Below are positions 536-52,603 of a stretch of DNA of 56,090 bases, one piece after another; positions within the stretch are counted from its first letter, which is position 1, and every line of letters begins with the position of its first letter. Position numbers and translations under genes: made by a program. A model generated the notes under the pieces. The model did no database searches. It saw only the letters and a list, made by a program, of their open reading frames with translations, and was not told the DNA's origin. Source of the stretch: a virus; the IMG/VR virus record IMGVR_UViG_3300037191_001062, positions 1 to 56,090 of that record; one strand, written 5' to 3'.

Positions 536-1399
536 ATGCAAAAAACATTACCAATTAAAACTATCGTAGCATCTATCATTGGACTACTAATATTTCTTCT
601 ATTGTGGTCAAGCTGGTACACTGTATCTGAAGGACACGTGGGAATCGTTAAACGCTTCTCTGAAGCAAAAAGTCAACAAAACCCAGGTTTGCGATTTAAA
701 ATACCATTCGCAGATACTGTCGAAGAAATTGAAATCCGTACTCGTAAAAACGAAGAAGCAATGACTTCAAGCACTGCAGAACAAATGCCAGTCACAGTGA
801 AGGTGTCTGTTAACTGGACAGTCGACAAAACTGCTGCGCTTGAATTATTTAAACAATACGGCGGCCTTCAACAATTTGAAAATCGAATATTAGATCCACG
901 ATTCCGTTCTGCTACCAAGGATGTTATTCCTAAGTTTACTGCGGAAAAGTTAATACAAGATCGTAGTTCTGCTATTATGTTGATTGAATCATTATTAATT
1001 GAAGAAATGACTCCGTTCCCAGTCAAAGTTGATAACATTCAAATTGAGAATATTACGTTACCACCAAAGTACTTGCAATCAATTGAAACTAAACAGACTG
1101 CTAAAAACTTAGCTGATGCTGAACAATTCAATCTTGATAAGCAAGCACTAGTTGCTCAACAGGGTGTTAACATAGCAAAAGCAAAAGCTGACGGTATTAA
1201 CTTTGTTGCTGAAGCTGAAGCGAACTCAATTCGATTAAAAGGTGAAGCTGAAGCTTCCGCTATTAAAGCAAAAGCTGCTGCACTGAAAAGTAATCCACTT
1301 ATTGTCGACTTAACTGAAGCACAACAATGGAATGGTCAATTGCCATATACCATCCTTGGTGAAGGCGGAATGCCGATATTGGATATGCGCACAAATTAA
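536..1399 (+). CDS. Band-7/SPFH (prohibitin-like) membrane protein
   Basis: A 287-residue protein with an N-terminal membrane anchor (about residues 9-27), then an SPFH/Band-7 domain (TVSEGHVGIVKRF onwards) and an Ala/Glu/Lys-rich coiled coil (about 185-250, with KAKADGINFVAEAEANS and GEAEASAIKAKAAAL). Band-7 proteins form membrane-associated oligomeric scaffolds. They recur in large and marine phages, where their job is not established; protecting the cell envelope or inhibiting host proteases are guesses. An AAAGGAAAAA ribosome site precedes the ATG. A strong terminator follows at 1418. Confidence 0.88.
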   Translation: MQKTLPIKTIVASIIGLLIFLLLWSSWYTVSEGHVGIVKRFSEAKSQQNPGLRFKIPFADTVEEIEIRTRKNEEAMTSSTAEQMPVTVKVSVNWTVDKTAALELFKQYGGLQQFENRILDPRFRSATKDVIPKFTAEKLIQDRSSAIMLIESLLIEEMTPFPVKVDNIQIENITLPPKYLQSIETKQTAKNLADAEQFNLDKQALVAQQGVNIAKAKADGINFVAEAEANSIRLKGEAEASAIKAKAAALKSNPLIVDLTEAQQWNGQLPYTILGEGGMPILDMRTN

Positions 1400-5594: not shown

Positions 5595-6170
5595 ATGACA
5601 CTAAACTTAAGAGAACTGACCAAAGAGAATCATAATAATATAGAAGGCTCAGATTTTGCTGAAATATTATTAGGCGGAAGAATAAATCCACTACTATATT
5701 ACCAGTATCTCTCGGCCCAGTATGAGATTTATGAAGCACTTGAGTCGTTAGTGACAATTCCGTCAAAACTTAAAACTGTTTTTCGAGCTTCTCATATAAT
5801 GCAAGATATGCATGGACTTGAAGATGAGTATGGACTTGAAGAAATAACCGAAAACCTCGAATCAGTTAGTTCATATATTAGTCATATAACCGAGCTTAGC
5901 GCAAAAGGAGAACATGATAAGCTATTAGCTCATCTGTACGTTCGGCATTTTGGTGATTTACATGGTGGTCAAATAATCAAAAAGAGAGTCCCTGGTTCTG
6001 GTACAATGTATGAGTTTACTGGTCGCAAACAGTTGATCACAGATCTTCGTAGTATGTTAAATAATGATATGGCCCCAGAAGCTATTGTCTGTTTTAAGTT
6101 TGCAGAGCTATTATTTTTAGAATTAGTTGATAATTTTGAAGGTGAAGATTTTGAAGTTGATGATCTATAA
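5595..6170 (+). CDS. heme oxygenase
   Basis: A 191-residue all-helical protein matching the HO1 family: LRELTKENHNNIE with likely proximal heme ligand His13, then LYYQYLSAQYEIYEALE, and the distal-helix signature YVRHFGDLHGGQI (about residues 116-127). Heme oxygenase opens heme to biliverdin, releasing CO and iron. Phage versions are known from cyanophages (bilin synthesis) and other marine T4-like phages. There are no bilin reductase genes in this window, so iron release or redox roles are possible. Its stop overlaps the next ATG (TAATG). Confidence 0.85.
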   Translation: MTLNLRELTKENHNNIEGSDFAEILLGGRINPLLYYQYLSAQYEIYEALESLVTIPSKLKTVFRASHIMQDMHGLEDEYGLEEITENLESVSSYISHITELSAKGEHDKLLAHLYVRHFGDLHGGQIIKKRVPGSGTMYEFTGRKQLITDLRSMLNNDMAPEAIVCFKFAELLFLELVDNFEGEDFEVDDL

Positions 6171-9079: not shown

Positions 9080-9985
9080 ATGAGTCTTTTAGATAAAATG
9101 TTAAAATCCGGTTCAATCAAACAAGCTGGTGTTGTAAATAAATCTGCTTTCTTTGACGAAAAAGAACCAATTCAGACTGAATTACCAATTGTGAATATCG
9201 CTTTTAGTGGTTCACTTAAAGGTGGTTTAATCCCAGGTCTAACTGTTGTCGCTGGTGCATCAAAAAGTTTCAAAACTCTACTATCACTGTATTGTATGAA
9301 AGCATATCTTGAAAAATATAAAGATGGTGTTGCTTTGTTGTATGATTCAGAATTTGGTATTACACCAGATTATTTAGAAAGTTTTGATATTGATACGTCA
9401 CGTGTACTACATATTCCAATCGAAGATGTTGAACAGCTTAAATTTGATATCGTTAAGCGATTAGACCAGATTGATAAGAAAGATCGTGTATTCATCATGA
9501 TCGATTCTATCGGTAACTTAGCTTCTAAGAAAGAAGTTGACGATGCTATGAAAGATAACTCAGCTGCTGATATGACTCGTGCTAAGCAACTTAAATCTTT
9601 ATTTCGCATCATAACTCCAAAGCTAACTACAAGAAACATTCCTTGTTTAGCTGTTAATCATATCTATCAAGAAATTGGTATGTTTCCTAAGAATATTGTA
9701 TCTGGTGGTTGCGTAGTTGAAGGCACAGAAATTCAAACACCAGATGGTCTTAAGAATGTTGAAGACTTCAATGTTGGCGAAAAAGTTATTACTCTAAACG
9801 GTGATAAAGTTGTAAGTCATGTTTGGAACCCTGATACACTTGAAGATGGCAATCCAGAATGTTATGAAGTTGAATTTGAAGATGGATTTAAAGCAACTGT
9901 TTCAGATAAACATAAATTCTTGGTTAACGAAGAATGGGTTGAAGCTAAAGATTTAGTTGTTGGAATGGATTGTACTGTTATTTAG
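9080..9985 (+). CDS. uvsX: UvsX recombinase N-terminal part fused to an N-intein (split intein)
   Basis: Residues 1-210 are the N-extein: UvsX with Walker A GASKSFKT (59-66), the Walker B region VFIMIDSIGN and AVNHIYQ, ending ...IVSGG. Residues 211-301 are an intein N-fragment: it starts with catalytic Cys211 (CVVEGTEIQTPDG, block A), contains a block-B-like TVSDKHKFLV, and ends at a stop codon without any endonuclease domain. The missing half of UvsX follows as a separate ORF at 10039 behind a C-intein, so full-length recombinase needs protein trans-splicing. UvsX coats gp32-bound DNA and drives strand exchange and recombination-dependent replication. Confidence 0.92.
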   Translation: MSLLDKMLKSGSIKQAGVVNKSAFFDEKEPIQTELPIVNIAFSGSLKGGLIPGLTVVAGASKSFKTLLSLYCMKAYLEKYKDGVALLYDSEFGITPDYLESFDIDTSRVLHIPIEDVEQLKFDIVKRLDQIDKKDRVFIMIDSIGNLASKKEVDDAMKDNSAADMTRAKQLKSLFRIITPKLTTRNIPCLAVNHIYQEIGMFPKNIVSGGCVVEGTEIQTPDGLKNVEDFNVGEKVITLNGDKVVSHVWNPDTLEDGNPECYEVEFEDGFKATVSDKHKFLVNEEWVEAKDLVVGMDCTVI

Positions 9986-10038
9986 TGATACAATTGCTCT
10001 AGCTAGAAAGCTATATCTTAATGAAATAAGGAAACAAA
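9986..10038 (+). other. gap between the two split-intein genes
   Basis: These 53 bases separate the N-intein stop from the C-intein start and supply a ribosome site (AAGGAAAC). No endonuclease ORF or promoter is visible. The gap lies where a homing endonuclease domain would sit in a contiguous intein. Confidence 0.8.
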
Positions 10039-10581
10039 ATGAAAATAGTTAACGTTAAACAGGTTGGTAGAAAACCGGTTTATGATTTATCAATAGCAAC
10101 TGAAAATTATGATGAGCAACATTATGTACTCAAAAATGGTATAGTAACACACAATACTGGTATCTATTATTCAGCAAATCAAATCTTTATTATTAGTAAG
10201 TCTCAAGAAAAAGATGGTACTGATTTAGCAGGATTTAAATTTACAATCAATATCGAAAAATCTCGTTTTGTTCGTGAAAAAGCAAAACTACCATTCACTG
10301 TATTGTATGATTCTGGTATTCAAAAGTGGTCAGCATTGTTTGACTTAGCTATTGAATCTGGACATATAGCAAAAGGCGCCACTCAAGGCTGGTATAATGT
10401 TGTTGACCAAGAAACTGGTGAGCTTGTTGAACCTAAGCGTAGACAGAAAGACTTAGGTTCTGATGATAAATTCTTCGAAGCTCTTGTTAAAAACGAAACA
10501 TTTAACAACTTTATCGAACGTAAATATAAATTGACTATACCAGGAAAAATGAAAGATGATGGAAACAACGATACTATCTAA
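10039..10581 (+). CDS. uvsX: C-intein fused to the UvsX C-terminal part (split intein)
   Basis: Residues 1-39 are the intein C-fragment: block F-like PVYDLSIATENYDEQHYVL and block G GIVTHN, ending in Asn39. Residue 40 is the +1 nucleophile, Thr, beginning the C-extein TGIYYSANQIFIISKSQEKD. Joining 210 N-extein and 141 C-extein residues gives a 351-residue UvsX with the GGTG segment restored. Its own start codon and ribosome site show separate translation. Its 3' end overlaps the gp41 start. Confidence 0.92.
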   Translation: MKIVNVKQVGRKPVYDLSIATENYDEQHYVLKNGIVTHNTGIYYSANQIFIISKSQEKDGTDLAGFKFTINIEKSRFVREKAKLPFTVLYDSGIQKWSALFDLAIESGHIAKGATQGWYNVVDQETGELVEPKRRQKDLGSDDKFFEALVKNETFNNFIERKYKLTIPGKMKDDGNNDTI

Positions 10582-13377: not shown

Positions 13378-14607
13378 GTGCATAGTTTTAAAAATTTTAT
13401 AATAGAATCTAAGAACATTCATATGAAACACGTAGAAGATTCAGTAATTGATGGTAGTGTTACTGGTGTAAGAACTGTAATTGATTATTTCAAAAGTCTT
13501 CGTAATATGCTTGCTGGTAGTACAAGTGATACTGTTAACTTAAGTGTTAAATGGGATGGATCGCCTGCTATTTTTGCTGGAATCGATCCTTCTGATGGAA
13601 AGTTCTTCGTTGCAAAGAAAGGCTTATTTAATAAAAACCCAAAAGTTTATAAAACACAACAAGATATTAATGATGATTTGAGCGGTGCACTTCGTGATAA
13701 ATTTACGATAGCGCTCAAAGAGCTTAGTAAACTTGGAATTAAAGGAGTTGTACAAGGTGATTTCCTCTATTCGAGCGATGATATTGAAGAAGATAATATT
13801 GATGGAGAACCGCATATTACTTTTCATCCTAATACCATTGTTTATGCGGTACCAAAGAAAAGCGATCTTGCTAAAAGAATCCTTAAATCAAAAATCGGTG
13901 TGGTCTGGCATACAATCTACAGAGGAGAATCTTTTGAGACACTGTCAGCAACTTTTGGAAAAGAGATTGCAATCGATCTTAAAGAAGTAGGTTCTGTTTG
14001 GTCAGTTGATGCTGTATTTAAAGATTCTTCGGGTTTAGTTACATTTACTAAACAGGAAACTGATGAAGTTACTATGATGTTATCAAATGCTGATAGAGTA
14101 TTTACGCGCGTTAAAAAAGCAGTCTTGGACGAACTTTCAAATAATACAGAACTCAATCTTCGAGTTAATACTTATATAAATAGTAAAATAAGAGCTGGTG
14201 AACGCATTATTGATCTTGCGGCTTTTATGATTGGACTTACTCAATTTATCGAAGAGTATTATCAGAAACTAGCAGACAAGCGTAAAACTCTAAAAGGAAA
14301 AACTGCTCAAATGGATAAAAAAAATTCTGTATTATCGTTCTTTAATAAATTTAAACAAAAAGATATTGAGAACGTATTCATCTTATATAATATACTAGTT
14401 GATATTAAATTAGTTATCATTGATAAGCTGAATAAAGTAGATGGCCTTAAAACTCTACTTAAAACAAACAAAGGTTACGAAGTTACTGGTCAAGAAGGTT
14501 TTGTTGCTATAGATCGTTACGGCAAGAATTCATTGAAACTAGTAGATAGATTACAATTTAGTAAAGCAAACTTTTCAAGTGATTATATTAAAGGGTGGCA
14601 AAAATGA
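13378..14607 (+). CDS. DUF6267-type protein with ligase-like motif I
   Basis: A 409-residue protein starting at GTG. Residues 1-10 (MHSFKNFIIE) resemble the capsid-targeting sequence of T4 internal proteins (MKTYQEFIAE). The body contains LSVKWDGSPAIFAG (about residues 55-68), matching the KxDG motif I of covalent nucleotidyltransferases (DNA/RNA ligases), then FVAKKGLFNK and GVVQGDFLYS, which could be ligase motifs Ia and III. Related proteins are annotated DUF6267 in marine phages. Either a diverged ligase or a catalytically dead relative is possible. The stop overlaps the next start (ATGA). Confidence 0.65.
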   Translation: MHSFKNFIIESKNIHMKHVEDSVIDGSVTGVRTVIDYFKSLRNMLAGSTSDTVNLSVKWDGSPAIFAGIDPSDGKFFVAKKGLFNKNPKVYKTQQDINDDLSGALRDKFTIALKELSKLGIKGVVQGDFLYSSDDIEEDNIDGEPHITFHPNTIVYAVPKKSDLAKRILKSKIGVVWHTIYRGESFETLSATFGKEIAIDLKEVGSVWSVDAVFKDSSGLVTFTKQETDEVTMMLSNADRVFTRVKKAVLDELSNNTELNLRVNTYINSKIRAGERIIDLAAFMIGLTQFIEEYYQKLADKRKTLKGKTAQMDKKNSVLSFFNKFKQKDIENVFILYNILVDIKLVIIDKLNKVDGLKTLLKTNKGYEVTGQEGFVAIDRYGKNSLKLVDRLQFSKANFSSDYIKGWQK

Positions 14608-16648: not shown

Positions 16649-16656
16649 TATAAATA
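16649..16656 (+). promoter_or_regulatory. T4-type late promoter
   Basis: TATAAATA, 42 bases upstream of the 16698 start, after the hairpin at 16586. Confidence 0.7.
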
Positions 16657-16697: not shown

Positions 16698-18650
16698 ATG
16701 GACAAAACTAAAAAATCAAAAGGGTATACTAAATCTCGAAAAGAGTTTAACCCAAAAAAATTCATTAATACAAAACCAAGTTTAAACGAAGCAGAGAAGA
16801 AAGATACTGTTGTAATTAGTTTTGGAAGAATGAATCCAATCACAGTTGGTCACGAAAAGCTCGTTAATAAAGTATTAGAAGTCGCTGCTAAATCTAAAGG
16901 TACACCACTAGTATTCCTATCTCAATCCAATGACAAGAATAAAAATCCACTAACGTATGACCAAAAAATAAAATTCGGCCAAAAAGCATTCGGTAGAGTA
17001 GTTACTAAAACTAATTCTAAAACAATTATACAAGTTGCAGTAGAATTACAAGATAAATTTAAAAATCTTGTAATGGTTGTTGGTTCTGACCGAGTTAAAG
17101 ATTTCGAAGCACTTTTAAACAAATATAACGGAAAGGATTATACTTTTGATTCTATTAGAATTGAATCTGCAGGTGAACGAGATCCTGATGGCGAAGGCGT
17201 TGAGGGTATGTCAGCATCTAAGATGAGAACTTCAGCTGTAGAAAATGACTTTGATTCATTTAAAAGTGGTCTTCCAAACAAACTCAAATCAGACGCTAAA
17301 GAAGTATTTGATGCTGTTCGTTCTGGTATGAATATATCAGAAGAAACTATTTATGAAGCGCTTAATAACCAACAACGCAGAAAACGTGCTATATTAATGA
17401 AGAAACTTGCACCTAAAATTAAACGTGGGCGCGAAAGAGCAGCAAAGAAAAAAGCACCATTATCTAAATTAAAAGATCGAGCTCGCAAAAAAGCAATCGG
17501 TGTAATGAAAGACAAGTTAGCTAAAGGTAAAGGCTACGGTGAATTAGGATTTGCACAAAGACAAGCTATCGATGACAAATTAAAGAAAATGGGTCCAGCA
17601 AAAATTAGTGTTCTATCTAGAAAATTATTACCTAGCGTAAAACAGAATGAAAAAGATAGATTTTCAAACAAAAATAAAAAAGAAAGTGTTAACGAAACGT
17701 TTGAATTGTTTTTACAAGATAGAATACTCGATGAAGCATGTAGAATAGATAAAGTTATGAAAAGACCACACATGATGATGGCAAGTAATAACACAATGAA
17801 ATTCGACAAACGCTTTAAAATGTATAAGACAAAAAACAAGACTGTTGACGAAGTAATAGAAAAACATAATACTCATTTTGAAAGTAACGGAGACGAAGCG
17901 ATGAATTTAAAAGACATATTTAACTTGCAAGAAGCAGTAGAAGAATTTATTGATGAATCATTGGAAGAAGCAAAAAAGATTGGATCTAAAGTTGAAGTTA
18001 TTCGTGGATTCGGTAAAGGTAAAGTCGGATATGTAAGAAGAATCCTTAAAGGTGAATATGGTAATCTTTCTGCTCGCAAACTTGATTTAGATTTAGAAGA
18101 TGACGGCGGTCAACTAGTCGTATACACTAAAGACGCTAAAGAAATAAAAAAAATAAAAGAATCTCTTGATGAAGCAATCAATAAAGAATCTCCATTGTAC
18201 AAGCAATACATTGAACTTAAAGGTAAATCAGTTAAAGATTTGAAAAGAATCTATCAAGCTAATAACAGTCTCGATACTAGTGGTTACGACCTTGGCAGTA
18301 AAGCAGATATTATTGCAGCTATATTGTATGATAACCACGGAAGCAGGCGTGTTAAAGTTTTATATAACGAATCTCTTGATGAAGCAAAGAAGCCAGGACT
18401 CTGGGCTAACATTCGAGCAAAACGCAAACGTGGAGAAAAACCAGCAAAACCAGGCGAAAAGGGTTATCCTAAAACTTTAGACATTGAAGAAGCTAAAACT
18501 AGTTATAAAGGTCCTTTTAACGTTGTTAAAGACGGTAAGGTTGTTAACAAAGAGCCAATGACAACTAGTCGTGCACTAGATTATTACGACTCTTTAGGCG
18601 GCGCATCTAAAGGATACGCCGTTAAACCCGCTATGGCGAGTAAGGTTTAA
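16698..18650 (+). CDS. modular protein: cytidylyltransferase-like domain plus repeats with prohead-protease-like sites
   Basis: A 650-residue protein. Residues 1-31 form a basic leader ending LNE, then A32. Residues about 36-205 are a nucleotidyltransferase fold: GRMNPITVGH (43-52, the (H/T)xGH motif), VVGSDRVKDFE (127-137) and MSASKMR (171-177, the SxxxxR-type motif). Then come a basic segment (221-346), a KOW/SH3-like segment (about 425-480) and short modules, each ending in [LI]xE-A: after residues 31, 220, 346, 412, 424, 492, 562 and 598. T4 prohead protease gp21 cuts after the E in such contexts. I infer a head-packaged or core polyprotein. Late promoter at 16649. Confidence 0.75.
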   Translation: MDKTKKSKGYTKSRKEFNPKKFINTKPSLNEAEKKDTVVISFGRMNPITVGHEKLVNKVLEVAAKSKGTPLVFLSQSNDKNKNPLTYDQKIKFGQKAFGRVVTKTNSKTIIQVAVELQDKFKNLVMVVGSDRVKDFEALLNKYNGKDYTFDSIRIESAGERDPDGEGVEGMSASKMRTSAVENDFDSFKSGLPNKLKSDAKEVFDAVRSGMNISEETIYEALNNQQRRKRAILMKKLAPKIKRGRERAAKKKAPLSKLKDRARKKAIGVMKDKLAKGKGYGELGFAQRQAIDDKLKKMGPAKISVLSRKLLPSVKQNEKDRFSNKNKKESVNETFELFLQDRILDEACRIDKVMKRPHMMMASNNTMKFDKRFKMYKTKNKTVDEVIEKHNTHFESNGDEAMNLKDIFNLQEAVEEFIDESLEEAKKIGSKVEVIRGFGKGKVGYVRRILKGEYGNLSARKLDLDLEDDGGQLVVYTKDAKEIKKIKESLDEAINKESPLYKQYIELKGKSVKDLKRIYQANNSLDTSGYDLGSKADIIAAILYDNHGSRRVKVLYNESLDEAKKPGLWANIRAKRKRGEKPAKPGEKGYPKTLDIEEAKTSYKGPFNVVKDGKVVNKEPMTTSRALDYYDSLGGASKGYAVKPAMASKV

Positions 18651-18730
18651 ACATATTAGTTAGAAAAGTGATAAATATACCCAAATGAAAGTTTAGATTT
18701 ACAGAAATAATACAGATAATATTATATAGA

Positions 18731-18738
18731 TATAAATA
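18731..18738 (+). promoter_or_regulatory. T4-type late promoter
   Basis: TATAAATA, 34 bases upstream of the 18772 start. A second, weaker match (GATAAATA) lies near 18670. Confidence 0.7.
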
Positions 18739-18771
18739 AGAGTATAAATTAAACAATATAAAGGAAAAAGA

Positions 18772-19923
18772 ATGTCATTTGAATACAAAACGGAATCATT
18801 GATAGCAAATTTTGTTAATAATACGCTTGGCGAAGCTAAAACAGCAAAAGTTACTGATAAACTCGACGATGGCGATGGAATGGATCCTGTCGGTAAAGGC
18901 GACGCCGATATTGATAACGATGGCGATGTAGATAAGTCAGACAAATATTTAAAAAATCGTCGTAGAGTAATTGGTAAAGAAATTAAGAAAGAATCCGTTG
19001 AACTACAAGAAGCTCAATATAAAGATTTGCAGTCATGGTTGATCGCTGCTCTTGATCCAGCTGGCTCTAATGTATCATACTTTAACGGTAAATTTAAAGT
19101 ACTAGTAGGCCGTAATAAATCACATACGTGGGATACTAATAAAGGCAAAGGTTCTGTAATGGAGTCTGTTGAAATTGAAGAAGGTTTTACTGTTAGTATG
19201 AAAGGCGGTTCAATTGGCGGCGGTAAATCGAAAGGTAGAGAATTTGATACCAAAGAAGAAGCTGCTGCGTATGCCAAAAGAATGAATAAAGTTTTATCTC
19301 CAGGTGAGAAGAAACATTATGGTATGAAGTATGTTGTAGTCAAAGAATCCATTGAAATTGAAGAAGGTTTTAAGAAAGGCGACAAAGTTACTGTTAAGAA
19401 TGCAAAATCATACGATGCACTAGCAAAACCTGAAGTTAGTGGTGTTGTTGGTGGAATGAATGGCGACAAAGTTATGGTTAAAGTTGGAACTGGTTCAATG
19501 AACGTTGATGCTAAAGACTTAATCAAAAAAACAATGGAAGAGTCGCAAGGTAACACTAAAAGTATGCGAGGCTCGTCACGCGTCGGTGGTAAAGAATTTG
19601 CTATAGTCAACAATTATGGTGAAGTTCATAGTAAAGATTATGGCTCTGCTAGCGAAGCTCGCAAAGAAATTAGATCGTATGGTCTTAAAAGTCATAAAGT
19701 AGTAGATGTTGTCGATCTTGAAGAAGGTTCTGTTGTATTAGAAGCTGCTATTGGTGATTATAAAGAACTAATCAAGTTTGCAAGTTCTGAAGGTGGTGCT
19801 GATAAAAGTGACATGCTTAAAGCAGCAGCACTCATTGCTAAAGGCGAAAAAGAATTACTTAAGAAACATTTAGATAACATGGATAGTTATCCTGTAGATA
19901 TCATTAATAGCTATATAGATTAA
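18772..19923 (+). CDS. modular late protein with EF-hand-like loop and repeated prohead-protease-like linkers
   Basis: A 383-residue protein built of modules of about 60 residues joined by ES(V/I)EIEEGF-type linkers. Residues 1-21 are a leader ending LGE, then A22. Residues 46-57 (DIDNDGDVDKSD) form a perfect EF-hand/dockerin-type calcium loop. Predicted cuts ([LI]xE before A or G) fall after residues 21, 80, 137, 198, 318 and 324. One module (199-258) is KOW-like (FKKGDKVTVKN). Like the preceding gene it has a late promoter. A processed scaffold or packaged protein is the best guess. Confidence 0.7.
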   Translation: MSFEYKTESLIANFVNNTLGEAKTAKVTDKLDDGDGMDPVGKGDADIDNDGDVDKSDKYLKNRRRVIGKEIKKESVELQEAQYKDLQSWLIAALDPAGSNVSYFNGKFKVLVGRNKSHTWDTNKGKGSVMESVEIEEGFTVSMKGGSIGGGKSKGREFDTKEEAAAYAKRMNKVLSPGEKKHYGMKYVVVKESIEIEEGFKKGDKVTVKNAKSYDALAKPEVSGVVGGMNGDKVMVKVGTGSMNVDAKDLIKKTMEESQGNTKSMRGSSRVGGKEFAIVNNYGEVHSKDYGSASEARKEIRSYGLKSHKVVDVVDLEEGSVVLEAAIGDYKELIKFASSEGGADKSDMLKAAALIAKGEKELLKKHLDNMDSYPVDIINSYID

Positions 19924-19952: not shown

Positions 19953-20252
19953 ATGGCTTCATGGGGAAAAACTGATACTTTAGCAGATGCTCCAAAGTAC
20001 TTAACAGACACAGAAGTAGCTACAACAGTATTCATTGATACTAACGAAGCAGTAGTTTCAGCTAACAGATCAAAAGGTCTTAAAACTCCGGGTTGGAATA
20101 CGTATTCAGAATATGTAGACCAAAATGGTAACACTCGTAAAAAAGTTGAACCGTTAGTTGTAATGAAAGTTACTGCTGCTGAAGACACTGGTCTAGATGT
20201 TGGTGTAACTGGTGATACTGCAGTTGAAGATGCTATAGTTGCAGATAGTTAA
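19953..20252 (+). CDS. small virion protein, conserved in marine T4-like phages
   Basis: A 99-residue protein, MASWGKTDTLADAPKYLTDT..., with AAGAGGAAA upstream. The MAxWGKxDxxxxAPKY start is familiar from marine T4-like phages, where such proteins lie in structural clusters. It is acidic at the C-terminus. Possibly a decoration or minor capsid protein; the role is inferred from position only. Confidence 0.6.
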   Translation: MASWGKTDTLADAPKYLTDTEVATTVFIDTNEAVVSANRSKGLKTPGWNTYSEYVDQNGNTRKKVEPLVVMKVTAAEDTGLDVGVTGDTAVEDAIVADS

Positions 20253-21682: not shown

Positions 21683-21883
21683 ATGTCAATCGAAAAAATA
21701 ATTGCACACGCAATTCAAGGTAACGTGCTTGAAATGGAAGAATCGTTTAAAGAAGAAATGCGTGATCGCATATCTATTGAACTTGAAGAAAAAAGAAAGA
21801 AAATAGCTAAAGAGTCTGAAGAAGATGAACTCGAAGATGATGATGATGAAGATGAACTCGAAGAATATTCTAACAAAAAATGA
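21683..21883 (+). CDS. 67: gp67-like prohead core protein
   Basis: A 66-residue, highly charged helical protein: MSIEKIIAHAIQGNVLEMEE..., then an acidic run (about residues 46-61). Size, helical N-terminus and acidic tail fit the T4 gp67 prohead core family. The late promoter and AGGAGAA site support a late, abundant product. The assignment is by pattern. Confidence 0.65.
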   Translation: MSIEKIIAHAIQGNVLEMEESFKEEMRDRISIELEEKRKKIAKESEEDELEDDDDEDELEEYSNKK

Positions 21884-22143: not shown

Positions 22144-22230
22144 ATTAAGTACTAACTAATTTTAATAATGTATATAAGTTACTTGTTAGGTTCTATAAGA
22201 TATAGAGTTGAAAAAACTCAGGAGAGCAAC

Positions 22231-22872
22231 TTGTCAGAAGAACATGATATTAAACCAAGACGTAGATTAGATATATCTTCTTTAATTATTGTCATTATTA
22301 CAAATTTTGTTACGTTATCAGGTTCATTATTTGCGTTCAAGACTAGTCAGGATACTACTCAGAGCGCATTAATGAAAACTGCTTTACATCAAGTGCAATT
22401 GCAGAGTAAAGAAATAGTAGAACTTAGAGGTTTACTATTAGATGCTCAAATAAAGATAATAAATTTAGAAACTAGAGTTAGATCAAATGTTGATGAAACT
22501 GTGTTGATGTCTGAATTTTTAGACTCTCTACCATTTCCAGCTTGGATTAAAAGATTCCGCAAAGAAGACGGATTATTTGAAATGACTCTCATAAACCAAC
22601 ACTACACTGCTGACTTTGGTTATACGGAAAATGAATACATTGGCAAGACTGATTTTGATATACATAGTGATGAACTTGCTAGTTTATATTTATCAGATGA
22701 TCTTATGGTTTTAAGCACTGAGAAAATGCGGGTTATAGAACAAATTATGGTAACCAAGAACGGTGTTCCTAAAAAGATATTTGTTTATAAGTTTATAATC
22801 AGGCTACCAGACGGTGAATTAGCAGTAGGCGGTGTAGCAATAGATAAGAAAGATATTGGTGTAATACATTAA
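22231..22872 (+). CDS. membrane-anchored coiled-coil PAS-domain protein
   Basis: A 213-residue protein. I chose TTG 22231 because CAGGAGAGC lies directly upstream; an ATG at 22168 is in frame but has no ribosome site. Order: short basic cytoplasmic start, one membrane helix (SLIIVIITNFVTLSGSLFAF), a coiled coil (QLQSKEIVELRGLLLDAQIK), then a PAS-like fold (LPFPAWIKRF ... NQHYTADFGYTENEYIGKTD). PAS domains sense small ligands or redox state. It lies between lysozyme and holin, so it may time or tune lysis, taking the place of a spanin or anti-holin; this is inference. Confidence 0.7.
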   Translation: MSEEHDIKPRRRLDISSLIIVIITNFVTLSGSLFAFKTSQDTTQSALMKTALHQVQLQSKEIVELRGLLLDAQIKIINLETRVRSNVDETVLMSEFLDSLPFPAWIKRFRKEDGLFEMTLINQHYTADFGYTENEYIGKTDFDIHSDELASLYLSDDLMVLSTEKMRVIEQIMVTKNGVPKKIFVYKFIIRLPDGELAVGGVAIDKKDIGVIH

Positions 22873-52039: not shown

Positions 52040-52603
52040 ATGAAAACTTTTAGTAATTACATCTCAGAACGTTTCGTTAACGTTTTTAAACCTAACGAAA
52101 AACAACCACATGCACAAGAAGTATTCGACATGATACAAACATCATATGCATCTATTGGCGGCATGAAAGGAAGTGGGTTTAATTCTCCAGAAGACATGAT
52201 TGCAAAAATACCATTCTGGAAACTAGTACGTAAAGATAATAAGATTGTTGCTGGTTCTATGTACAAAGATAAATCAGGTAGAAAGCGTGTTGCAGTATTC
52301 ACAAATGGTGAAACTAACGGTAAAGCTGGTCTTGCAATGATCATGAAAGAAGATTTTGCTCGAGCATATTTCGAAGTATCAAAAGCATCTTTAGGATTCA
52401 TGGTTAAAACTCTTGGTGTTTCGTTTGTTAAGAAGTATGCAAAAACTCTTGATCAAGTTGCTGATCGATTAGACGACGATGTTGAATTATTACCAGTTCC
52501 CAAGGACGATCTTCATCTATCTAAGTTTCCAGAATTGAAAGACTTTTTCTACCAAAGAGAACTTGGTGGCACAAACCACACTAAAATCATGTTAGGAAAA
52601 TAG
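52040..52603 (+). CDS. late protein with CTS-like N-terminus, possible internal head protein
   Basis: A 187-residue protein. MKTFSNYISE closely resembles the T4 capsid-targeting sequence MKTYQEFIAE. The rest has a mixed fold with VRKDNKIVAGSMYKDKSGRK, VAVFTNGETNGKAGLAMIMK and FARAYFEVSKASLGFMV, unknown to me. A packaged protein delivered with DNA would fit the N-terminus and the late promoter at 51601. Confidence 0.65.
   Translation: MKTFSNYISERFVNVFKPNEKQPHAQEVFDMIQTSYASIGGMKGSGFNSPEDMIAKIPFWKLVRKDNKIVAGSMYKDKSGRKRVAVFTNGETNGKAGLAMIMKEDFARAYFEVSKASLGFMVKTLGVSFVKKYAKTLDQVADRLDDDVELLPVPKDDLHLSKFPELKDFFYQRELGGTNHTKIMLGK

What the first reader, a model, noticed from the sequence alone, without database searches (positions are those of the whole stretch)
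16698..19923. Two adjacent late proteins look like prohead-protease polyproteins
The 650-residue protein has eight [LI]xE-A sites (after residues 31, 220, 346, 412, 424, 492, 562, 598) and the 383-residue neighbour has six [LI]xE-A/G sites (21, 80, 137, 198, 318, 324). They separate recognisable modules: a cytidylyltransferase-like domain, a basic block, KOW-like units and an EF-hand-like loop. T4 gp21 cuts head proteins after the E of just such motifs. Both genes have late promoters. I suggest capsid-packaged polyproteins that are cut into several small proteins in the prohead, including an enzyme that could be injected.
Basis: partly seen in the sequence, partly recalled or inferred. Interest (0 to 1): 0.85.

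Follow-up and report, generated by a model that had tools for sequence, protein, structure and literature searches.

The report
Phage head proteins built for cutting
Two neighbouring proteins of a marine T4-like phage look like strings of small modules joined by recognition sites for the phage's own head-assembly protease, so one gene probably yields several small proteins packed inside the virus head, one of them an enzyme; cutting itself has not been shown.

Summary
The 650-aa protein has exactly the eight [LI]xE|A sites listed (0.4 expected). The 383-aa protein has five [LI]xE|[AG] sites (0.6 expected), not six: 324 is VLE|A. In homologues the site before the nucleotidyltransferase domain is almost fixed (P3 L/I 45/46, P1 E 46/46, P1' A 41/46) while its neighbours vary; the site after it keeps its glutamate in 47/50. 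Some homologues replace the propeptide with MKTFKNLLE|A or MKKFSAFLTE|A, the layout of T4's capsid-targeting sequence. [quoted passage not shown] C-terminal modules move between genes, and their edges fall at [LI]xE sites 1.5-1.8 times more often than expected; most decoy motifs do not. A module that follows an internal site here follows the N-terminal targeting peptide of a separate gene in cyanophage P-SSM7. Published virion proteomics places homologues of the enzyme, and in S-SCSM1 a homologue of the second protein's calcium-loop module, in particles. I conclude these are gp21-type head-protease substrates (about 0.85) and probably cut into several modules (about 0.65). Cleavage and injection are inferred. 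The substrate class is known; the multi-cut modular version is a new variant.

The parts
16649..16656 (+). TATAAATA octamer, possible T4-type late promoter of the 650-aa gene
   Evidence: exact match; not enriched in the window overall
16698..18650 (+). 650-aa predicted head-protease substrate / polyprotein
   Evidence: ORF; eight [LI]xE|A sites, 0.4 expected; phrog_3041 cytidyltransferase E 4.5e-70
16698..16790 (+). predicted N-terminal propeptide, residues 1-31, ends ..KPSLNE|A
   Evidence: P3 L/I 45/46, P1 E 46/46, P1' A 41/46 in homologues; replaced by T4-like targeting peptides in some homologues
16791..17357 (+). nucleotidyltransferase (cytidylyltransferase-like) module, residues 32-220, with TVGH and GMSASKMR motifs
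   Evidence: PF01467 above cut-off; pLDDT about 90 over most of 35-212; Foldseek matches PPAT/NMNAT
17358..17735 (+). basic helical module, residues 221-346
   Evidence: pLDDT about 90 or more for roughly 230-320; homologous in 43 non-redundant ORFs; no [LI]xE[AGS] inside across homologues, 5.8 expected
17736..17933 (+). module 347-412; related segment found at other positions and in other ORFs in relatives
17934..17969 (+). short linker 413-424 with sites 412, 420 (IDE|S) and 424
17970..18173 (+). module 425-492, basic, KOW-like by eye only
   Evidence: no family match; disordered in the model
18174..18383 (+). module 493-562, SAP-like by eye; relatives carry it in other ORFs behind a site
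   Evidence: L076, L017, L077
18384..18491 (+). GLWANIRAKR module, residues 563-598, follows ESLDE|A
   Evidence: in P-SSM7_194 the same module follows N-terminal MKTYSQFIEE|G; 43 of 65 distinct contexts in viral contigs preceded by [LIV]xE within 12 aa, mostly at -3
18492..18647 (+). C-terminal module 599-650
   Evidence: follows DIEE|A site; no relatives found
18731..18738 (+). TATAAATA octamer upstream of the 383-aa gene
18772..19923 (+). 383-aa predicted head-protease substrate / polyprotein
   Evidence: five [LI]xE|[AG] sites, P 0.0003 against shuffles
18772..18834 (+). predicted propeptide 1-21 ending TLGE|A
18835..19011 (+). EF-hand-like module 22-80, ends KESVELQE|A
   Evidence: 33 non-redundant ORFs with this module; 57% identical over 53 aa to S-SCSM1 gp280, annotated as a virion protein
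19012..19182 (+). module 81-137, ends ESVEIEE|G
   Evidence: homologue in L002 also starts at LQE|A
19183..19365 (+). module 138-198, ends KESIEIEE|G
19366..19725 (+). module 199-318, starts GFKKGDKV (SH3/KOW-like barrel), ends VDLEE|G
   Evidence: L036 136-aa ORF carries it after EEVELGE|AFKKGD; small beta-barrel in the model
19726..19920 (+). helical C-terminal module 319-383
   Evidence: related stretches in L066, L051, L004
13378..14607 (+). DUF6267 protein beginning MHSFKNFIIE|SKN, a T4-type capsid-targeting peptide: same class of substrate, single cut
   Evidence: PF19782 E 9.8e-100; homologues begin MKRFTQYIAE|A, MMKFTQFLAE|S and similar
19953..20252 (+). head protein (phrog_613)
21683..21883 (+). 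gp67-like prohead core protein
   Evidence: phrog_1064, E 0.0012

Best explanation
Both proteins are internal head (prohead core) proteins of a marine T4-like phage. They are carried into the prohead by N-terminal propeptides and cut after the glutamate of [LI]xE|[AGS] by the phage's gp21-type protease. Because the motif also sits in the linkers between modules, one precursor yields several small products: a nucleotidyltransferase, a basic helical protein, the GLWANIRAKR peptide, a SAP-like, a KOW/SH3-like and an EF-hand-like module. The linkers and modules are interchangeable and have been shuffled between genes. Shown by sequence: site enrichment, conservation of the two sites flanking the enzyme, modular shuffling with edges at sites, a T4-like targeting peptide on homologues, and a matching protease and capsid protein in relatives. 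Published: virion presence of homologues. Inferred: cutting at internal sites, retention of the products in the mature head, and injection of the enzyme.
For: Enrichment of sites. Site 31: P3 L 44, I 1, V 1; P1 E 46/46; P1' A 41/46, while flanking residues vary; site 220: P3 L/I 40/50, P1 E 47/50. Site 220 lies beside a low-confidence gap (216-219) between two confident folds. Motif under-represented inside the folded domains (4 vs 10.8 and 0 vs 5.8 expected) and enriched in the two linkers. N-termini MKTFKNLLE|A, MKTFKASLTE|A, MKKFSAFLTE|A (P-SSM7), MKKFSAFLNE|A (S-SM1), MKNFNSFLTE|A (S-B68), MKNIKDILE|A (DLP6), MKSFLQFLKE|A (S-SCSM1). 77 of 856 neighbourhood proteins have such an N-terminal site, 20.7 expected, with consensus MK.F..[FY][LI].E|[AGS]. 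PMC9026906: gp21 motif L/I-X-E; in the IPIII targeting sequence residues 4 and 7 serve targeting, 8 and 10 processing. Module edges near [LI]xE[AGS]: 229 vs 126 expected (starts), 189 vs 127 (ends); decoys with P1 D/K/N/Q or P3 K/R/D/E/N/Q mostly about 1. Internal linker E[ESD][VIL][ED][LI]xE[AGS]: 45 vs 0.25 expected; none with D, K, N or Q at P1. GLWANI module contexts. gp21 (PF03420) in 8 and gp23 (PF07068) in 9 of 26 related contigs, gp23 with LLSE|A or FLTE|A near residue 56. Virion proteomics of homologues: S-SM1 (PMC3037559), S-SCSM1 (PMC9602691), S-CREM2 (PMC10665884); the S-SCSM1 record marks gp089, gp282, gp281 (NMNAT), gp280 and gp279 as virion proteins.
Against: No proteolysis data for this phage or a close relative. 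The window (a 56-kb fragment) contains neither gp21 nor gp23. Sites 346-598 are not positionally conserved. [LI]xE[KRDE] is as enriched at module edges as [LI]xE[AGS], and [VFMY]xE[AGS] is mildly enriched, so the edge statistic is not specific for A/G/S at P1'; module edges in one family are not fully independent. Coincidence of sites with low-pLDDT stretches is not significant (5/8, P 0.14; 5/5, P 0.09). Some homologues lack a propeptide (L078, L079; S-CAM4) or [LI]xE[AGS] sites altogether (HTVC008M gp130).
Confidence: 0.65

Rival explanations
1. Single-cut internal protein: only the N-terminal propeptide is removed (as in T4 IPI-III), and the rest stays one multidomain protein in the head; internal LxE|A linkers are mostly protected or used sporadically.
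For: Site 31 is by far the best conserved. Isolate homologues such as Syn33_182 have one [LI]xE[AGS] site, the N-terminal one. Nucleotidyltransferase and basic domain stay in one ORF in nearly all relatives.
Against: Internal linkers carry the same P3/P1/P1' preferences as the N-terminal sites. Modules that follow internal sites here follow N-terminal targeting peptides in separate genes elsewhere. Site 220 is largely conserved.
Confidence: 0.2
2. Sacrificial core filler: the C-terminal modules act as scaffold and are cut to small peptides that leave the head, like T4 gp22, gp67 and gp68; only the enzyme (if anything) is retained. This overlaps with the best explanation in that several cuts are made, but the products are waste, not cargo.
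For: T4 core proteins are cut into multiple fragments that mostly exit (PMC9026906). Site density here (10 in 650 aa) recalls gp22 of S-B68 (8 in 352 aa). Modules are small and charged.
Against: Individual modules are strongly conserved in sequence (GLWANIRAKR, EF-hand-like loop), which sacrificial filler would not need; S-SCSM1 gp280 carrying the EF-hand-like module is annotated as a virion protein.
Confidence: 0.3
3. Not head proteins: the 650-aa protein is a cytosolic NMNAT-like enzyme with acidic linkers, and the LxE|A sites are composition effects.
For: Authors of two proteome papers note possible carry-over in CsCl preparations. S-CAM4 has a bare 187-aa enzyme.
Against: Shuffle and Markov controls, decoy motifs, near-invariant L-x-E|A before the domain, T4-like targeting peptides on homologues, repeated virion detection.
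Confidence: 0.08

Closest known systems
T4 internal proteins IPI-III and Alt with capsid-targeting sequence, cut by gp21
   Same: N-terminal targeting propeptide ending [LI]xE|A; homologues use the same 10-residue layout MK.F..FI.E|A; at least one enzyme carried (Alt in T4, nucleotidyltransferase here)
   Different: T4 IPs are cut near the N terminus (Alt at both ends); here eight and five sites separate modules. The propeptide of this 650-aa protein is a longer basic one (31 aa), not the 10-residue form
T4 prohead core proteins gp22, gp67, gp68
   Same: several gp21 sites per protein, small fragments
   Different: core fragments mostly leave the head; they are not modular fusions with an enzyme domain
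phiKZ / SPN3US inner-body and ejection proteins cut by gp175 / gp245
   Same: several head and ejection proteins cut after E, long propeptides cut several times
   Different: motif S/A-x-E or A-x-E rather than L/I-x-E; not described as module strings in the text read
Cyanophage virion-associated NMNAT/cytidylyltransferase (T4-GC190; S-SM1, S-SCSM1, S-CREM2)
   Same: homologous nucleotidyltransferase domain, same gene neighbourhood (between gp41 and gp61/nrdA in several cyanophages), detected in virions
   Different: processing sites were not discussed in the passages of these papers I read; the tails differ and carry fewer sites
Polyvalent proteins (Iyer et al. 2017, PMC5512222)
   Same: multidomain phage proteins delivered with the genome, compared there to viral polyproteins
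   Different: those rely mainly on embedded peptidase domains; no peptidase domain found here

Membership tests
gp21-type prohead protease substrates (T4 internal head proteins) | N-terminal propeptide ending in [LI]xE followed by A/G/S, conserved in the family | tested here: met
   site 31: P3 L/I 45/46, P1 E 46/46, P1' A 41/46
gp21-type prohead protease substrates (T4 internal head proteins) | 10-residue capsid-targeting sequence as in IPIII | tested here: inconclusive
   absent from the two window proteins, present on several homologues and on the window's DUF6267 neighbour
gp21-type prohead protease substrates (T4 internal head proteins) | same phage encodes an S77 (gp21) protease and a capsid protein cut at the same motif | tested here: inconclusive
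   not in this 56-kb fragment; present in relatives, gp21 in 8 and gp23 in 9 of 26, gp23 with LLSE|A
gp21-type prohead protease substrates (T4 internal head proteins) | protein present in heads | not testable with these tools
   published only for homologues (PMC3037559, PMC9602691, PMC10665884)
gp21-type prohead protease substrates (T4 internal head proteins) | cleavage at the motif observed | not testable with these tools
   needs virion N-terminomics or an in vitro assay
Cytidylyltransferase-like superfamily (PF01467) | profile match above curated cut-off and T/HxGH motif | tested here: met
   24.3 bits vs 21; TVGH and GMSASKMR in sequence; fold match PPAT/NMNAT
NMN adenylyltransferase | specific family-level match or activity | tested here: inconclusive
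   only the broad TIGR00125 domain, below cut-off; nearest folds are PPAT, NMNAT at rank 8
Polyvalent proteins | embedded zincin or other peptidase domain processing the polypeptide | tested here: not met
   no peptidase family in either protein
phiKZ-type inner-body proteins | cleavage motif S/A-x-E | tested here: not met
   the conserved P3 is L/I

The most novel reading that the evidence does not exclude
Marine T4-like phages run a true capsid-delivered polyprotein system: interchangeable modules joined by mobile cleavage linkers (E[ES][VI]E[LI]xE|A, or VKNxIxINPxLEE|A) are packaged as one chain, separated by gp21 inside the prohead and injected as a set of small effectors, so that new cargo can be added by recombination at the linkers.
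Probability: 0.35. Interest if true: 0.82.

Novelty: new variant of a known kind. Interest (0 to 1): 0.62.

Why it matters
It would explain a block of conserved 'hypothetical' genes between the helicase and primase/ribonucleotide-reductase genes of marine T4-like phages as internal head proteins, give a way to predict their mature products from sequence, and explain how a nucleotidyltransferase repeatedly found in cyanophage virions gets there. It can be tested at once by re-searching existing virion mass-spectrometry data for semi-specific peptides.

Tried and rejected
tblastn of the 383-aa protein against phages and a scan of viral contigs found no full relative; its relatives appear module by module. 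phmmer against PDB sequences: no match. Late promoters as evidence: rejected as statistically weak. Low-pLDDT coincidence as evidence: not significant. Total density of [LI]xE without regard to P1': not enriched (13.6 vs 13.1 per 1000 aa in replication proteins); only the share followed by A/G/S rises, 0.34 vs 0.15. The ORF break of the enzyme gene in L072 near site 220 looks like a frameshift or assembly error and is not used as evidence.
Full report
OBSERVATION. The window is one virus record of 56,090 bases. Its gene set (split UvsX, helicase, DUF6267, cytidylyltransferase, DUF7207, primase, thymidylate synthase, nrdA, nrdB) and the synteny with P-SSM7, S-SM1, Syn33 and HTVC008M make it a marine T4-like phage fragment. 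The 650-aa protein has exactly the eight [LI]xE|A sites listed (plus IDE|S at 420 and IKE|S at 488), against 0.41 in residue shuffles and 1.3 in a Markov model (none of 20,000 and 5,000 runs reached eight). The 383-aa protein has five [LI]xE|[AG] sites, P 0.0003 against shuffles, 0.005 against the Markov model; the sixth listed (324) is VLE|A.

SITES FLANKING THE ENZYME ARE CONSERVED. Eighty IMG/VR loci encode relatives of the 650-aa protein. In 46 homologues with an N-terminal extension, the residue pattern at site 31 is L 44, I 1, V 1 at P3; E 46/46 at P1; A 41/46 at P1', while P2 and the surrounding positions vary. At site 220 the glutamate is kept in 47/50 and L/I at P3 in 40/50; a site in [LIV]xE[AGS] form lies within 12 residues in 31/50. 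AlphaFold2 with 34 sequences puts site 220 beside a low-confidence gap (216-219) between two confident folds, the nucleotidyltransferase (35-212) and a basic helical domain (224 to about 330). Across homologues the motif is under-represented inside these folds (4 vs 10.8 and 0 vs 5.8 expected) and over-represented in the two linkers. The general overlap of sites with low-pLDDT stretches is not significant.

THE PROPEPTIDE IS EQUIVALENT TO A T4 CAPSID-TARGETING SEQUENCE. In L064, L071, L073 and L074 the long propeptide is replaced by MKTFKNLLE|A, MKNFKSLLE|A, MKSFKTSLTE|A or MKTFKASLTE|A, and in isolates by MKKFSAFLTE|A (P-SSM7), MKKFSAFLNE|A (S-SM1), MKNFNSFLTE|A (S-B68), MKNIKDILE|A (DLP6) and MKSFLQFLKE|A (S-SCSM1). 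Across 856 proteins of these gene neighbourhoods 77 carry an N-terminal site, 20.7 expected, with consensus MK.F..[FY][LI].E|[AGS]. The T4 review PMC9026906 gives the gp21 motif as L/I-X-E and, for IPIII, residues 4 and 7 for targeting and 8 and 10 for processing: the same positions that are conserved here. The window's DUF6267 protein also begins this way (MHSFKNFIIE|S). Relatives with longer contigs encode a gp21 (PF03420) in 8 of 26 and gp23 (PF07068) in 9 of 26 cases; their gp23 has LLSE|A, FLTE|A or similar near residue 56. The window itself lacks both genes, which is possible for a fragment.

THE C-TERMINAL MODULES ARE MOBILE AND THEIR EDGES FALL AT SITES. The C-terminal sites are not conserved position by position, because the modules are rearranged. 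Segment 347-385 reappears at 690-722 in L004 and in another ORF in L051; segment 493-562 reappears in other ORFs in L076, L017 and L077, usually right behind a site; the EF-hand-like module is near the N terminus here but C-terminal in L080; the GFKKGDKV barrel follows ELGE|A in a 136-aa ORF of L036. In an all-against-all comparison of 893 non-redundant proteins, module edges lie within 10 residues of [LI]xE[AGS] 1.82 times (starts) and 1.48 times (ends) as often as expected; decoys with D, K, N or Q at P1, or K/R or D/E/N/Q at P3, mostly give about 1 ([KR]xE at ends 1.33). [LI]xE[KRDE] gives 1.91 at starts, so the signal follows L/I-x-E with a relaxed P1'. Internal linkers of the form E[ESD][VIL][ED][LI]xE[AGS] number 45 against 0.25 expected; none has D, K, N or Q in place of the P1 glutamate. 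In the window the linkers are short direct repeats at DNA level (KESVELQE, MESVEIEE, KESIEIEE; KESLDEA, NESLDEA).

THE CLEAREST CASE. In the window ESLDE|AKKPGLWANIRAKRKRGEKPAKPGEKGYPKTL is internal. In P-SSM7 a separate 172-aa gene begins MKTYSQFIEE|GKKKGLWDNIHAKRKRGERPARKGEKDYPKTL. Among 65 distinct contexts of this module in viral contigs, 43 are preceded by [LIV]xE within 12 residues, mostly at offset -3, and 8 are at a protein's N terminus. The module also occurs in small podoviruses, so it is not tied to gp21 phages only. S-SCSM1 gp280 contains, internally, KNTIKINPKISE|E, the same kind of segment that serves as the N-terminal propeptide of many enzymes in this family.

VIRION EVIDENCE FROM LITERATURE. 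Citidylyltransferase T4-GC190 was found in S-SM1 virions (PMC3037559), NMNAT ORF91 in S-SCSM1 (PMC9602691), ORF154 in S-CREM2 (PMC10665884). In the S-SCSM1 record the neighbouring gp089, gp282, gp280 and gp279 are also marked virion proteins, and gp280 carries the EF-hand-like module of the window's 383-aa protein, 57% identical over 53 aa. The authors of two of these papers caution that co-purification is possible. In the passages I read, none discusses processing; I could not open supplements.

MECHANISM. Shown: architecture and conservation. Published: virion presence of homologues and gp21 specificity in T4. Inferred: the precursor enters the prohead core through its propeptide, gp21 removes the propeptide and separates modules, and some products stay with the DNA and may enter the cell. 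The main rivals are a single N-terminal cut (0.2) and sacrificial core filler (0.3); the filler reading overlaps with the best explanation, since it too involves multiple cuts.

NOVELTY. The protease, its motif and targeting peptides are known from T4; several cuts per protein are known for T4 core proteins and for SPN3US and phiKZ head proteins (PMC9026906, PMC10052503); virion cytidylyltransferase is known in cyanophages. Polyvalent proteins (PMC5512222) are the closest concept but use embedded peptidases. I found no description of gp21-site-delimited, shuffled modules in the literature held. Hence: new variant of a known kind.

Noticed in passing
window 52040-52603: 187-aa ORF beginning MKTFSNYISE|RFVNVF, a T4-type capsid-targeting start far from the block described; no Pfam match.
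   Followed up: partly
window 13378-14607: DUF6267 protein begins MHSFKNFIIE|SKN; many homologues have the same targeting-type start, so DUF6267 is probably an internal head protein.
   Followed up: partly
window 9080-10581: UvsX gene appears interrupted by an intein-like insertion (CVVEGTEIQTPDG ... VTHN), split into ORFs 9080-9985 and 10039-10581.
   Followed up: no
L113-L192, window 18384-18491: The peptide GLWANIRAKR is strikingly conserved in many phages, including podoviruses and roseophages, often near an actual or predicted mature N terminus; function unknown.
   Followed up: partly
window 536-1399 and 5595-6170: By eye, a prohibitin/SPFH-like protein and a heme-oxygenase-like protein; not checked against family libraries.
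   Followed up: no
window 22168-22872: Protein with a C-terminal PAS domain (PF08448, E 1.8e-05) near the head-gene block.
   Followed up: no
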